From positions 1 through 64,000 of IMG/VR virus record IMGVR_UViG_3300010157_000061: 64,000 bases of DNA, one strand, 5' to 3'. A model generated the notes under the pieces. It was not told where the DNA came from. It saw only the letters and a list, made by a program, of their open reading frames with translations, and did not search any database. Made by a program: the position numbers and the translations under genes. This document shows positions 36,639 through 41,101 of this stretch, piece after piece; the stretch's first letter is position 1, and each line of letters starts with the position of its first letter. This stretch comes from a virus.

Positions 36639-37010
36639 ATGAAAAAACTACTATTAGTACTAACGCTGTTATGTTCACTAACTACATTACAAGCTCAAGA
36701 CACAATCAAAATACCTACTCCTATAGCTAAATCAATCATTCACGATTTGATAAGCGGAGATAGTGCTAAAGTAGAACTAAAACTAACCAAAGAAGTATTA
36801 GATTCTACCGAAAAGAAAGTCGTAATCAAGGATTCATTAATCGCTAAATGGCAGAATAAGTACATGGTTTGCGATAATAACCTTAGGAACGAGAAGACGA
36901 AATTTGAATTACAGAGTCAATACGTTACTCAATTAGAACGTGGTAAAACTAAACTAAAGGTAGTAGCAGGTTTTTTTATCTTTACAACAATCTTCGCTTT
37001 ATTAAAATAA
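36639..37010 (+). CDS. Secreted coiled-coil protein, possible lysis partner
   Basis: 123 residues. Residues 1-20 are a signal peptide (KKLLLVLTLLCSLTTLQAQD) with a Bacteroidetes-style AQD end; no lipobox Cys is present. A coiled-coil region follows (KVELKLTKEVLDSTEKKVVI) and the C-terminus is a membrane helix (KVVAGFFIFTTIFALLK), so this would be anchored at its end. It pairs with the preceding spanin-like gene. Its last 131 bases occur again at 37651-37781. Confidence 0.6.
   Translation: MKKLLLVLTLLCSLTTLQAQDTIKIPTPIAKSIIHDLISGDSAKVELKLTKEVLDSTEKKVVIKDSLIAKWQNKYMVCDNNLRNEKTKFELQSQYVTQLERGKTKLKVVAGFFIFTTIFALLK
36880..37010 (+). repeat. 131-base direct repeat, copy 1 (3' end of gene)
   Basis: It starts accttaggaacgagaag and runs to the stop codon of the secreted protein gene. 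Copy 2 at 37651-37781 differs at seven positions, all transitions. Confidence 0.9.
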
Positions 37011-37014
37011 CAGA

Positions 37015-37023
37015 TATTTATTA
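37015..37023 (+). promoter_or_regulatory. TATTTATTA late-promoter-like motif
   Basis: It lies 15 bases before the ATG at 37039. Confidence 0.4.
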
Positions 37024-37038
37024 ATATAAACTTTAAAA

Positions 37039-37635
37039 ATGAAGAGACAAATTAACGAAGTAGTTAGAATGAGACGCCTGGCCGGTCTAATTACAGAAGC
37101 TGAAGAACAGCAAGAGCTAGAAGCAGCAGGGTCAAAACTACCTAAAATAGCTAAGATCGAAAAGAGTAGTAAGCCTGGAATCTTTCATAGAGACGGAATA
37201 CTCTACAGCATCACCTTAGATAATGGTGACAAGGTCGAAGCAACCGATAGAACTCTATACAGTATCTTCGGAGATGATCCTTCAAACCCACAAGTATTTG
37301 TTGGTCAGGAATGGGATCAAGCCCCTTATAACGGAGATAAGCAAAACTTAAAAGAAGGTCCTGCTGTACAATTAGTAGTAAAAGCAGTACAAGCAGCATT
37401 AGCTAAAGGAAGCACAGTTGAAGTAAACGGTGAAGAAGTAATTAGTGTAGTACCTTTAGCAGGTCGTTTTAAGACATCTAATGGTGGAATGATTAAAATC
37501 GGAGATGTGGAAAATGTTGAGATTGATGGAGAACCCTTAGACTTAGAGATGCCAGACATAGATCAATCATCTCCTAACTTTAAATACACACCAACCGATC
37601 CAGGTGACTCTATAACAGGTTATCATGGAGATTAA
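37039..37635 (+). CDS. LAGI-type protein 1
   Basis: 198 residues. The leader MKRQINEVVRMRRLAGLITE has RMRRLAGL and an ITE step, related to the gp22 C-terminus YRMQQLAGI. The body is beta-rich and acidic (GILYSITLDNGDKVEATDR, GSTVEVNGEEVISVVPLAG) and ends in a Pro/Asp-rich tail. No enzyme motif. The gene lies between the two copies of the 131-base repeat, and a second LAGI-type gene follows copy 2, so the repeat plus LAGI gene may have been duplicated as a unit. Confidence 0.55.
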   Translation: MKRQINEVVRMRRLAGLITEAEEQQELEAAGSKLPKIAKIEKSSKPGIFHRDGILYSITLDNGDKVEATDRTLYSIFGDDPSNPQVFVGQEWDQAPYNGDKQNLKEGPAVQLVVKAVQAALAKGSTVEVNGEEVISVVPLAGRFKTSNGGMIKIGDVENVEIDGEPLDLEMPDIDQSSPNFKYTPTDPGDSITGYHGD

Positions 37636-37650
37636 AAAATAAGTGATGTT

Positions 37651-37781
37651 ACCTTAGGAACGAGAAGACGAAATTTGAATTACAGAGCCAATACGTTACT
37701 CAATTAGAACGTGGTAGAACTAAACTAAAGGTAGTAGTAGGTTTTTTTATCTTTACAACAATCTTTGCTTTACTAAAGTAG
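37651..37781 (+). pseudogene. Duplicated 3' fragment of the secreted-protein gene (repeat copy 2)
   Basis: This 131-base block matches 36880-37010 except at seven transitions. In the original frame it still reads 42 codons to a stop with two amino-acid changes (Lys to Arg, Ala to Val). It has no start codon, and a TGA lies in frame just upstream, so it is a gene remnant. Five of the seven changes are silent. Confidence 0.8.
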
Positions 37782-37786
37782 GTTAA

Positions 37787-37795
37787 TATTTATTA
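37787..37795 (+). promoter_or_regulatory. TATTTATTA motif two bases before ATG
   Basis: The motif is separated from the start at 37798 by TT only. Confidence 0.4.
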
Positions 37796-37797
37796 TT

Positions 37798-38325
37798 ATG
37801 AACGAACTAAAAAGAATGCAGCAATTAGCTGGAATACTGAAAGAGAGTACTGGACTAGGAAGCAGTATGAGCTGGCTTAAAAGACTAACTCCGGAAATAG
37901 AAAAAAGCATAGACCGCTTAAAACAAAATTACCCTGACTATACAATTAAAATCACTGATAACAGTACTTGGAGAAGAGATAGACCGGACCTTAAAGGAAC
38001 TTATACATTATCTGTAGACGGACCTGTAATAACACCCGAGTTAAAGGTTGATATAGGTAGAATAGTTGATATGTCCAGGCTACAAGAAGGATTCCAAGGA
38101 GATAATGATGATCAAGATGATGGAATGAGTGGATTTAGAGGAGGAGCATTAGATAGATCAACTCCTAATGAACCTTCAATAGATAAGTCTAAACTAGGAT
38201 GGCAATCCTATCGTCTACTAGATAGATATATTACAAAGATGACTCAAGAACAGAGATTTAGACTGTATCAAACTATAGCTCAATTTCTTACTAAACAGGG
38301 TATAAAGAATCCAGATGAAGACTAA
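37798..38325 (+). CDS. LAGI-type protein 2
   Basis: 175 residues. MNELKRMQQLAGILKESTG carries the same RMQQLAGI string as the end of gp22, followed by an LKE step. An alpha/beta part follows (PEIEKSIDRLKQNYPDYTIK, GTYTLSVDGPVITPELKVDI), then an acidic Gly/Asp linker and a helical end (YRLLDRYITKMTQEQRFRLY). Beyond the leader it does not clearly match the other LAGI proteins. A strong terminator follows. Confidence 0.55.
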   Translation: MNELKRMQQLAGILKESTGLGSSMSWLKRLTPEIEKSIDRLKQNYPDYTIKITDNSTWRRDRPDLKGTYTLSVDGPVITPELKVDIGRIVDMSRLQEGFQGDNDDQDDGMSGFRGGALDRSTPNEPSIDKSKLGWQSYRLLDRYITKMTQEQRFRLYQTIAQFLTKQGIKNPDED

Positions 38326-38417: not shown

Positions 38418-38448
38418 TATAAATATACGGTTTGATGTCCTTTTGATA

Positions 38449-38456
38449 TATTTATA
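38449..38456 (+). promoter_or_regulatory. TATTTATA late-promoter-like motif
   Basis: It sits 12 bases before the GIY-YIG start and just after a strong terminator, so the endonuclease and terL probably begin a new transcript here. Confidence 0.45.
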
Positions 38457-38468
38457 TAAAATAGACTA

Positions 38469-39059
38469 ATGCCACAACAGGTAAGTAATGTAACTTATAT
38501 ATATGTAGTAACAGGTATAGAAGGAAATTCCAATAAAGTGTACGTAGGTAAGACGAAAAATACTTCTCGAGAAAGGGATCATAAAAACAAGTACGGTAAT
38601 GGTATTGAATTTGCGTTTATAGACTATGTGGAGTCTTTAGAAAGAAAGTATTGGCAACCGTTAGAAACATACTGGATTGAGCAATTCAATGCATGGGGAT
38701 TTAACGTTGTTAATGTAAAGAAAAAAGGTGGGAGCGGTGTCGAATACCACACAGAAGATACTAAACAGAAGATACGAGCGAAAAATCTAGTAAGTAGTAG
38801 GAGAGGTATAGATCATCATAATTTTGGTAAACCTAACCCTGCTCTAAGTAGGTTGAATAAGTTAAAAGTAGGTAGAAACCACCCAATGTACGGTAAGATT
38901 AATTTGGGAGCGAGCAAGAGTAGTAGTGCTAGAGTAGGTAGTAATAATCCGAACTATAGTAAAGTTTGGATAACTGATGGAATTGTAAGTAAAATGATAA
39001 ATCAAGACTCAGAAGTCCCGTCAGGATTTCACTTAGGCAGAACGTACATAAGAAAATAA
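38469..39059 (+). CDS. GIY-YIG homing-type endonuclease
   Basis: 196 residues. The catalytic module has YIYVVTG and KVYVGKT as the GIY and YIG strands, an Arg in TSRERDHKN, and the late Glu in LETYWIEQF. Three NUMOD3-like DNA-binding repeats follow (HHNFGKPNP, NHPMYGK, NNPNYSK). The end (KVWITDGIVSKMINQDSEV) is a typical WxTDG-type C-terminal unit. Such enzymes cut a specific allele so that their own gene is copied in. It stands 8 bases upstream of the terminase gene that carries the split intein, a likely homing target. Confidence 0.8.
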   Translation: MPQQVSNVTYIYVVTGIEGNSNKVYVGKTKNTSRERDHKNKYGNGIEFAFIDYVESLERKYWQPLETYWIEQFNAWGFNVVNVKKKGGSGVEYHTEDTKQKIRAKNLVSSRRGIDHHNFGKPNPALSRLNKLKVGRNHPMYGKINLGASKSSSARVGSNNPNYSKVWITDGIVSKMINQDSEVPSGFHLGRTYIRK

Positions 39060-39067
39060 AAACTATA

Positions 39068-39919
39068 ATGAATGAACAAGTAAATTATAAAGCAATAATA
39101 AAACAAGAATTTGTCAAGTGTGCCACAGACCCAGTGTATTTTATGAAACGCTATTATTGGATACAGCACCCTCAACGTGGACGTATTCAATTTAACTTAT
39201 ATCAATTCCAAGAACAGGTCCTACATCTATTACAGAATGATGAGTATATCATAATCAACAAATCAAGACAGTTAGGTATCTCAACCCTAGTATCTGCGTA
39301 TGCATTATGGTTGATGATATTCCAGAAGGATAAGAATATACTAGTTATTGCAACCAAGCAGGAGACGGCCAAGAACATGGTAACCAAGATAAGGTTTGCC
39401 TACGATCAATTACCGGCCTGGTTGAAAGTAAAATCAGTAGAAGATAATAGATTAAGTCTTAGACTAGCAAATGGTTCACAGGTAAAAGCAGTAGCAGCAT
39501 CACCGGATGCAGGTCGTTCGGAAGCAGTATCACTACTGATCTTAGATGAGGCTGCATTCATCGATAACATAGATACAATCTTTACCGCCGCTCAACAAAC
39601 CCTAGCCACTGGAGGACAATGCTTTGCAGTATCAACTCCCAACGGTACATCGAATTGGTTCCATAAAACCTATTCAAGGGCACAGATTAAGGAAAATAAA
39701 TTTACACCCCTTTCTTTACCTTGGACAGTACACCCGGAAAGAGATCAGACCTGGAGAAACGAACAAGATAAGACCTTAGGAGTTAGAGAAGCAGCTCAAG
39801 AGTGTGATTGTATATGGGGAGACAGCAGTGTAACAGTTCAATGCAAAGAGACAGGAGAGGTGAAAATCCTTTCGTTAGAACAGTTATATGCAGAAATGCA
39901 AGAATGTGATTATTTATAA
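39068..39919 (+). CDS. 17: Terminase large subunit, N-terminal part plus N-intein
   Basis: 283 residues. Residues 1-247 are the packaging ATPase: NKSRQLGIST (Walker A, 66-73), LLILDEAAF (Walker B, from 156) and the coupling segment FAVSTPNGTSNWF. Residues 248-283 are intein, beginning CIWGDSSVTV (block A with Cys1) and ending CDYL before TAA. The match to T4 gp17 resumes only in the next gene. The product should be inactive alone and must join its partner by trans-splicing, giving TerL of 247 + 281 = 528 residues. The next gene lies in the same frame after nine bases. Confidence 0.85.
   Translation: MNEQVNYKAIIKQEFVKCATDPVYFMKRYYWIQHPQRGRIQFNLYQFQEQVLHLLQNDEYIIINKSRQLGISTLVSAYALWLMIFQKDKNILVIATKQETAKNMVTKIRFAYDQLPAWLKVKSVEDNRLSLRLANGSQVKAVAASPDAGRSEAVSLLILDEAAFIDNIDTIFTAAQQTLATGGQCFAVSTPNGTSNWFHKTYSRAQIKENKFTPLSLPWTVHPERDQTWRNEQDKTLGVREAAQECDCIWGDSSVTVQCKETGEVKILSLEQLYAEMQECDYL
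39809..39916 (+). other. N-terminal half of split intein (36 codons)
   Basis: It begins at Cys1 after extein ...AAQECD. The block A pattern CIWGDSSV and the strand EVKILSLEQLYAEM are present; block B is absent from this half. An N-half this short is atypical, since most natural split inteins divide after block B. Confidence 0.85.
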
Positions 39920-39928
39920 GACTTAAGT

Positions 39929-40255
39929 ATGATACAGTTTAAATCAAACAATAAATATAGAGTACAAACACCTAGCGGATTTAAAGATTTCTCAGGAATG
40001 AGAAAGACTACAAAATCTAAGGTAGTAGAGATTACGTTATCTAACGGTAAATACTTGGAAGTATCAGAAGAACACAGGTTTTTAGGTATTGAAAACGTTG
40101 AAATACTAGCTAAAGATTTAATTGAAGGGATATGCCTAACAAAAAAGCTTAGTGTTACAAAGGTTAGTATTGTTGAAAAAGAAACATTTCTATATGATCT
40201 AACAGATGTAGGAGATGACAGCTACTATCTTACAGACGATATAGTATCACATAAT
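39929..40255 (+). other. C-terminal half of split intein (109 codons)
   Basis: It starts MIQFKSNNKYRVQTPSGF, contains a block-B-like EVSEEHRFLG, and ends with YYLTDDIVSHN before Cys+1 of the extein (CDFMTSG). Terminal His-Asn and Cys+1 are the expected splice residues. No homing endonuclease domain fits in the 145 residues total. Confidence 0.85.
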
Positions 40256-41101
40256 TGTGACTTTATGACCTCAGGTGCTACCGTCTTAGAACCGGAATTA
40301 TTAAATTGGTACGATGCTACTTGTGCTCAGGATCCTATGCAGAGAACGGGTATAGACAGTAATATATGGTTGTGGGAGATGCCAGACTATAGTAGAACTT
40401 ATGCAGTAGTAGCCGACGTAGCCAGAGGTGATGGTCGAGATTATTCATCGTTTCACATACTGGATATTGAATCAGCCAAGCAGGTCGGAGAATATAAAGG
40501 ACAGCTAGATACCAGAGATTTCGGTAATATGTTAGTAGGTGTTGCCACTCAATACAATGATGCATTACTGGTAATAGAGAACACAGGTATTGGATGGGAT
40601 GTCGTACAGACGGCAGTACATAGAGAGTATAGAAACCTATACTACTCTCCTAAATCCGATGCAGCTATGACTGATATCGAAGTCTACATCTCTAAATTTG
40701 ATAAAGGAGATGGTATGGTACCAGGCTTCTCAACCACGCAACGTTCAAGACCTTTAGTGATAGCTAAGATGAAATCATATATGCAAGAGAAATCTTGTAC
40801 CATACAATCTAAAAGACTCTTAGAAGAATTAAGAACCTTTGTATGGAAGCATGGCAAAGCACAAGCCCAGGAAGGTTATAATGATGACCTAGTAATGGCA
40901 TGGGCGATCGGTCTATTCCTGAGAGATACTACATTAAGATTCCAACAAGTAGGCCAAGACCTATCCAGAGCTACTCTTGGAGGTATGACAAAATCAAACT
41001 ACGGGTACCAAATCTACCAACCCACAACCTCAACCGGACAAAATCCTTGGGAGATGCCGAATCCTTACGGCCAGCAAGAAGATATTAGATGGGTCCTGTA
41101 A
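39929..41101 (+). CDS. 17: Terminase large subunit, C-intein plus nuclease part
   Basis: 390 residues. Residues 1-109 are the C-terminal half of the intein. From residue 110 (CDFMTSGATVLEPELL) the terminase continues with its RNase H-like nuclease: VVADVARGDGRDYS with the first Asp pair, LLVIENTGIGWDVV with the Glu, and GYNDDLVMAWAI with the last Asp. These cut the concatemer and end packaging. An ATG start at 39929 is supported by the match of MIQF to the start of the AceL-TerL C-half as I recall it. The frame is shared with the upstream gene. Confidence 0.85.
   Translation: MIQFKSNNKYRVQTPSGFKDFSGMRKTTKSKVVEITLSNGKYLEVSEEHRFLGIENVEILAKDLIEGICLTKKLSVTKVSIVEKETFLYDLTDVGDDSYYLTDDIVSHNCDFMTSGATVLEPELLNWYDATCAQDPMQRTGIDSNIWLWEMPDYSRTYAVVADVARGDGRDYSSFHILDIESAKQVGEYKGQLDTRDFGNMLVGVATQYNDALLVIENTGIGWDVVQTAVHREYRNLYYSPKSDAAMTDIEVYISKFDKGDGMVPGFSTTQRSRPLVIAKMKSYMQEKSCTIQSKRLLEELRTFVWKHGKAQAQEGYNDDLVMAWAIGLFLRDTTLRFQQVGQDLSRATLGGMTKSNYGYQIYQPTTSTGQNPWEMPNPYGQQEDIRWVL

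What the first reader, a model, noticed from the sequence alone, without database searches (positions are those of the whole stretch)
39068..41101. Terminase large subunit split inside an atypical split intein
The first gene ends in 36 intein residues (CIWGDSSV...) and the next begins with 109 more that end SHN before Cys. Removing them joins ...AAQECD to CDFMTSG..., a normal terminase of 528 residues with Walker A, Walker B and all nuclease acidic residues. The break lies between splicing blocks A and B, unlike common split inteins, which break after block B. From memory this matches the AceL-TerL intein of an Antarctic lake metagenome (about 25 + 104 residues, C-half starting MF and ending VVSHN), but the N-half here is longer. 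An essential packaging motor that depends on trans-splicing is remarkable, and another natural atypical split intein is useful for comparison.
Basis: partly seen in the sequence, partly recalled or inferred. Interest (0 to 1): 0.95.

Follow-up and report, generated by a model that had tools for sequence, protein, structure and literature searches.

The report
Split intein terminase with deleted-endonuclease scar
This phage makes its DNA-packaging motor as two proteins that a split intein almost certainly joins, and the DNA between the two genes still carries the tail of a lost homing-endonuclease gene, which shows how one such natural split arose.

Summary
TerL is encoded as 39068-39919 (247 aa extein + 36 aa IntN) and 39929-41101 (109 aa IntC + 281 aa extein). 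Two independent contigs carry the same junction. IntC matches the consensus AceL/GOS-type split intein "Cat" (PDB 6DSL, E=9e-13). All splicing residues are present and the read-through intein folds as HINT (pLDDT 92). So this is a new member of the known atypically split TerL intein family; 36+109 is close to GOS-TerL (37+115).

What is new is how the split arose. The nearest fractured relatives (L016, L104) have a 244-aa endonuclease gene between the halves. The window's junction encodes that gene's last nine codons (FIRLKYDTV*, relatives FIRIKYDSI*), out of frame with the intein. The deletion lies at a 7-bp repeat present in L016. Two other phages lost the gene independently and kept the split; one (L187) is identical over 4,830 bp to a contig that still holds it (L184). 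Endonucleases of at least three families sit at this position, often beside a short copy of the uninterrupted terL site. The window's TerL groups with intein-free phages, so the intein is mobile. A GIY-YIG gene, absent from those sisters, has inserted at terL's start codon. Trans-splicing itself was not tested.

The parts
38441..38468 (+). Leader sequence (TTTTGATATATTTATATAAAATAGACTA) that in intein-free sister phages lies directly before the terL start codon; here it lies before the homing endonuclease gene
   Evidence: Comparison with L010/L011/L013/L015
38469..39059 (+). Free-standing GIY-YIG homing endonuclease gene (196 aa, NUMOD3), inserted between the terL leader and the terL start codon
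   Evidence: Pfam NUMOD3 1.4e-5, GIY-YIG 0.0017; absent from intein-free sisters; close relatives found only in the same phage from other samples
39068..39808 (+). TerL N-extein, 247 aa, ATPase domain (P-loop KSRQLGIST, Walker B LLILDEAAF)
39809..39919 (+). IntN, 36 aa with Cys1 (block A), ending ...MQECDYL, and stop TAA 39917-39919
   Evidence: same end in fractured relatives L016/L104/L028
39899..39911 (+). Short copy of the uninterrupted terL insertion site (CAAGAATGTGATT versus CAAGAGTGTGATT)
   Evidence: p=0.002 in this locus; pooled 7 of 21 loci p<0.05
39912..39918 (+). ATTTATA, the 7-bp sequence present at both ends of the endonuclease insert in L016; inferred deletion breakpoint
39913..39942 (+). 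Scar: last nine codons and stop of the lost interposed endonuclease gene (FIRLKYDTV*), out of frame with IntN/IntC and overlapping the IntC start
   Evidence: 16 nt upstream of ATG match L016 14/16; no other 16-mer of 127,968 in the window does
39929..40255 (+). IntC, 109 aa: block B SEEH, block F D90, block G SHN
   Evidence: PDB 6DSL CatC E=9e-13; AlphaFold2 HINT pLDDT 91.6; Foldseek inteins
40256..41101 (+). TerL C-extein, 281 aa, starting Cys+1 (CDFMTSG), nuclease domain
   Evidence: tree

Best explanation
The two genes make the halves of one TerL, each ending or beginning with part of a class-1 split intein. The 36-aa IntN docks into the 109-aa IntC to complete a HINT fold. Cys1, the block B His, the block F Asp, and His108/Asn109/Cys+1 then carry out N-S shift, transesterification, Asn cyclisation and S-N shift, joining ...AAQECD to CDFMTSG... 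into a 528-aa motor (inferred from homology; not shown here). The split arose because an endonuclease gene had invaded the intein at this point ('fractured gene'). In this lineage that gene was later deleted through a short direct repeat, leaving a 3' scar, while the split remained (shown by comparison; direction inferred from the scar's protein-coding content).
For: Anatomy. CatC match. HINT fold. Invariant splicing residues across 22 relatives. Relatives L016, L104, L004, L109 etc. with the endonuclease gene between the halves, about 740 nt apart, where read-through cannot connect them. Purifying selection on the fractured pair L016/L104: dN/dS IntC 0.06, IntN 0.20, endonuclease 0.12. Scar FIRLKYDTV* versus FIRIKYDSI*. 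Chimeric junction: left side matches L016's 5' flank 29/44, right side its 3' flank 28/40, against 12 and 14 for the swapped comparison. Independent losses in L130 (CKFIRI scar) and L187 (WKNI* scar; 4,830 nt identical to the endonuclease-bearing L184). Identical junction in two other metagenomes.
Against: No protein data. The scar is short (16 informative nt), and the 7-bp repeat is not remarkable by length alone in such AT-rich DNA (shuffle p=0.65). L184's contig ends inside the endonuclease gene, so that pair shows only the 3' side of the difference. Relatives of the window that also lack the endonuclease gene and could show selection after its loss were not found.
Confidence: 0.85

Rival explanations
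1. The halves are joined in cis: ribosomes read through the single in-frame TAA and the contiguous 149-aa intein splices normally.
For: Both halves are in the same frame, one stop and 9 nt apart. Contiguous versions exist in relatives L017-L019. The read-through intein is predicted to fold well.
Against: In L016, L104 and the other fractured relatives the halves are separated by a whole gene, so trans-splicing is needed there. IntC begins at an ATG conserved with those relatives (MIQFK/MIEFR).
Confidence: 0.05
2. The split came first and the endonuclease genes invaded split inteins later; the window shows the ancestral state, not a loss.
For: Split forms without an interposed gene exist in three lineages.
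Against: The junctions contain codons for C-terminal elements of the nucleases: FIRLKYD and CKFIRI (the last part of the nuclease; a weak MTES_1575 match in L004 reaches close to its C-terminal end), and WKNI of the GIY-YIG type. An uninvaded ancestor would not be expected to hold these.
Confidence: 0.08
3. Decay or artefact: a contiguous intein with a nonsense mutation, or a sequencing error, so that TerL is broken.
For: A single TAA separates the halves.
Against: The same junction appears in three assemblies. The second ORF has its own conserved start. All splicing and terminase residues are intact. TerL is essential, and no other TerL copy matches in the record.
Confidence: 0.02

Closest known systems
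AceL-TerL, GOS-TerL and the consensus Cat atypically split inteins (PMC11766414; PDB 6DSL)
   Same: Host protein TerL; IntN of 25-37 aa and IntC of 104-115 aa; Cys+1; IntC with a TPSGF motif near its start and ending VSHN; sequence match to CatC E=9e-13
   Different: About 40% identical to CatC; Cys1 where GOS has Ser1; host phage of another lineage (nearest cultured TerL: Flavobacterium phage immuto, 50%); carries an endonuclease scar
Fractured genes (Dassa et al. 2009, NAR 37:2560; described from memory, paper not held)
   Same: Split intein interrupting a phage gene, with an endonuclease gene between the halves in the relatives; PD-(D/E)XK/Vsr-like endonuclease among them
   Different: In the window the endonuclease gene is gone, leaving its 3' end; the split lies between blocks A and B, not at the canonical endonuclease insertion site
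Split TerL of cultured T4-like phages (Salmonella phage SG1, Shigella phage JK32, Escherichia phage kaaroe)
   Same: Related split intein in TerL with an interposed or fused endonuclease
   Different: Inserted at Walker B (IYIDE|C...SHN|CAFI) instead of QECD|CDF; endonuclease TnsA/Endo I-like (SG1); IntN fused to the endonuclease in JK32 and, by the same gene layout, kaaroe
Collaborative homing (ICP1 terL intron with neighbouring T5orf172 gene, PMC10448857)
   Same: A homing endonuclease gene next to an interrupted terL, outside the intervening sequence
   Different: Intein rather than intron; homing activity of 38469-39059 not shown

Membership tests
Atypically split TerL inteins (AceL/GOS/Cat) | Inserted in phage TerL, the conserved host gene | tested here: met
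   Pfam Terminase_6N and intein-free relatives at 77-86% identity
Atypically split TerL inteins (AceL/GOS/Cat) | Short IntN (about 25-37 aa), break between blocks A and B, IntC about 104-115 aa | tested here: met
   36 + 109 aa; literature values in PMC11766414
Atypically split TerL inteins (AceL/GOS/Cat) | Sequence homology to the solved member 6DSL | tested here: met
   IntC versus CatC E=9.3e-13; structural rank 4, 40% identity, rmsd 2.0. IntN alone gave no match, being short
Class 1 intein | Nucleophile at 1, block B His, block F Asp, penultimate His, terminal Asn, C/S/T at +1 | tested here: met
   Cys1, H49, D90, H108, N109, Cys+1; H, D, H and N invariant in the alignments
Class 1 intein | Splices in trans | not testable with these tools
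   Needs expression
Fractured gene | Endonuclease gene between the halves | tested here: not met
   Only 9 nt here; no match to the L016 endonuclease elsewhere in the 67.7 kb record. The 3' scar shows descent from one
T4-type terminase large subunit | Walker A, Walker B, RNase H-like nuclease acidic residues after joining | tested here: met

The most novel reading that the evidence does not exclude
The point between blocks A and B of this intein family is a landing pad. Endonucleases of unrelated families invade it, beside a copy of the terL homing site, and thereby split the intein. When the endonuclease is lost by deletion through short repeats the split persists, and the phage is left dependent on trans-splicing of its packaging motor; exact re-fusion is rarer but may occur (L141). 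In the window a GIY-YIG gene newly inserted at the terL start codon has taken over mobility of the endonuclease-free split intein.
Probability: 0.35. Interest if true: 0.7.

Novelty: new member of a known kind. Interest (0 to 1): 0.58.

Why it matters
How split inteins arise is an open question. Fractured genes were proposed as the link (from memory of Dassa 2009), and the fixed position of endonucleases in inteins has been called puzzling (PMC6801210). This locus and its relatives form a series (empty gene, fractured gene, endonuclease-free split with scar, contiguous form). It includes a pair identical over 4.8 kb, one of which keeps the endonuclease gene, so origin and persistence can be tested directly. 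The family also offers some twenty further natural short-IntN split inteins for protein labelling, and cultured E. coli phages in which a trans-spliced packaging motor can be studied.

Tried and rejected
Stop-codon reassignment: rejected, TAA ends ordinary genes here. Sequencing error: rejected by two other assemblies. A strict Smith-Waterman test of the terL-site copy was weak in several loci, so it was repeated with matched control windows: 14 of 21 loci are individually not significant, and the claim rests on the pooled result. The 7-bp repeat alone is not significant by length; only its position at the breakpoint counts. A scar in the contiguous L017 linker could not be recognised. Intein DNA is not clearly more similar to L016 than the exteins are (63.9-70.0% against 65-66%), so a recent donor was not identified. 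dN/dS between window and L016 is saturated. The upstream GIY-YIG gene has no close relative inside other TerL inteins. Dassa 2009, Stevens 2018 and Bachmann 2015 are not held.

Full report
OBSERVATION. The window is part of a 67.7-kb virus record of a T4-like phage (portal gp20; gp23 capsid and tail sheath). TerL is encoded in two ORFs of the same frame, 39068-39919 and 39929-41101, separated by TAA and nine bases. The first ends in 36 residues and the second begins with 109 residues that do not belong to TerL. Without them the exteins make 528 residues, matching intein-free relatives with 77-86% identity in the C-extein. Contigs from two other metagenomes are 99.94-99.99% identical and have the same junction.

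WHAT IT IS. IntC matches CatC of PDB 6DSL, the engineered consensus of AceL/GOS-TerL, with E=9e-13; gp41-1 follows at 5e-7. A close AceL-like relative, L160, matches CatC at 5e-36 and is inserted at the corresponding terL position (FE|CEF), with a GIY-YIG gene between its halves. The intein read through the stop is predicted as a confident HINT fold (pLDDT 91.6, pTM 0.85), with its least certain stretch at residues 31-40, the split. The best Foldseek matches are inteins, 6DSL at rank 4. Block B His, block F Asp and SHN are invariant in 22 relatives. AceL-TerL is 25+104 with Cys1/Cys+1 and GOS-TerL 37+115 with Ser1/Cys+1 (PMC11766414). The window, 36+109 with Cys1/Cys+1, sits between them.

STATES OF THE SAME LOCUS. 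Scanning IMG/VR gave four states. (i) Intein-free terL (for example L010-L015, L021, L025). (ii) Contiguous intein in one ORF (L017-L019, L141/L143, L148, L157, L188/L189). (iii) Split intein with an ORF between the halves, an endonuclease wherever tested: 32 junctions in 31 loci, close relatives included. (iv) Split intein with no gene between: window, L130, L187. Endonucleases at the split belong to unrelated families: PD-(D/E)XK-like (L016, L004 group; weak Pfam support), GIY-YIG (L005, L022, L142, L160) and HNH_3 (L145); the Walker B intein of Salmonella phage SG1 has a TnsA/Endo I-like one. They sit at the same place in the intein, between blocks A and B.

THE SCAR. In L016 and L104 the endonuclease ORF runs 14 nt into IntC and ends ...CKFIRIKYDSI* or ...CKFIRIRYDSI*. 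In the window the bases 39913-39942 read FIRLKYDTV* in that same out-of-frame register, with the stop at the same place relative to the IntC ATG. The 16 nt upstream of the ATG match L016 at 14 positions; among 127,968 16-mers of the window only this one does. IntN ends ...QECDYL* as in L016. Left of ATTTATA the window follows L016's 5' flank (29/44 against 12/44); right of it, L016's 3' flank (28/40 against 14/40). ATTTATA occurs at both flanks in L016. Inference: about 720 bp were deleted between these repeats. The gene is not found elsewhere in the record.

OTHER LOSSES. L130 has 27 nt between its halves, and the junction encodes RCKFIRIAYYEVE*, the tail of the same endonuclease type. L187 keeps the WKNI* end of a GIY-YIG gene; from that point on it is identical over 4,830 nt to L184, which still has the gene. 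So the endonuclease gene has been lost at least three times with the split retained, once very recently. L141, contiguous, keeps the internal MLENKINN start of its fractured relatives L144/L145 and a codon (TTG) where they have the TAG stop. This suggests that re-fusion also occurs, but the evidence is thin.

COPY OF THE TARGET SITE. Several fractured loci carry, at or just after the IntN stop and before the endonuclease start, a short copy of their own uninterrupted terL site: L160 TTGAGTGTGAGTTCTTAGG 19/19; L136 CAAGAATGTGATTGT 15/15; L187 17/19; window CAAGAATGTGATT 12/13. Against control windows of the same loci, 7 of 21 non-redundant loci reach p<0.05 (binomial 5e-5) and 6 reach p<0.01 (5e-8). 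This is what invasion by an endonuclease at, or together with, a sequence like its terL target would leave; the td intron/I-TevI case is similar (Loizos 1994, from memory).

MOBILITY. In a tree of 106 C-exteins the window groups with intein-free L010/L013 (SH-aLRT 99), and the intein label needs 14 changes, at least 10 forced by supported branches. L010/L011/L013 have TNFS where the window has CDFM, including Cys+1, consistent with co-conversion when the intein arrived. A 196-aa GIY-YIG gene (38469-39059) is absent from these sisters and lies between terL's former leader and its start codon. It could mobilise the endonuclease-free intein, as in collaborative homing proposed at ICP1 terL (PMC10448857), but no activity is shown.

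SHOWN AND INFERRED. Shown: the split, family membership by sequence and predicted fold, relatives in all states, the scar, the near-isogenic pair, patchy distribution, purifying selection on the fractured pair. Inferred: trans-splicing, direction and mechanism of the deletion, the role of the upstream gene. The kind of object is known; the endonuclease-loss series did not turn up in the held literature, but the key 2009 paper could not be read.

Noticed in passing
38441-39067: A GIY-YIG homing endonuclease gene has inserted exactly between the terL leader and the terL start codon, so terL now starts 9 nt after its stop.
   Followed up: partly
L148:801-1223, L157:2594-3001, L188:3268-3696, L035: Some loci carry two related inteins in terL at two sites (Walker A or B and the QEC|CDF site); L035 has both split, each with its own interposed ORF.
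   Followed up: partly
L129:4350-4640: The endonuclease ORF appears fused in frame to IntC (ILKGDSWKEVEFKKNNEYEILTP), the reverse of JK32 where IntN is fused to the endonuclease.
   Followed up: no
36880-37031 and 37651-37803: A direct repeat of about 153 bp, 91.5% identical, flanking the 198-aa ORF 37039-37635.
   Followed up: no
37039-37635, 37798-38325: Two neighbouring ORFs begin with similar short motifs (RMRRLAGLITE / RMQQLAGILKE), reminiscent of protease-cleaved targeting peptides of T4-type internal head proteins (I/L-x-E).
   Followed up: no
L024:1537-4389, L023, L194: Cultured Salmonella, Shigella and Escherichia phages have terL annotated as two genes, one sometimes as 'hypothetical protein', because of a split intein at Walker B that the annotations do not name.
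   Followed up: partly
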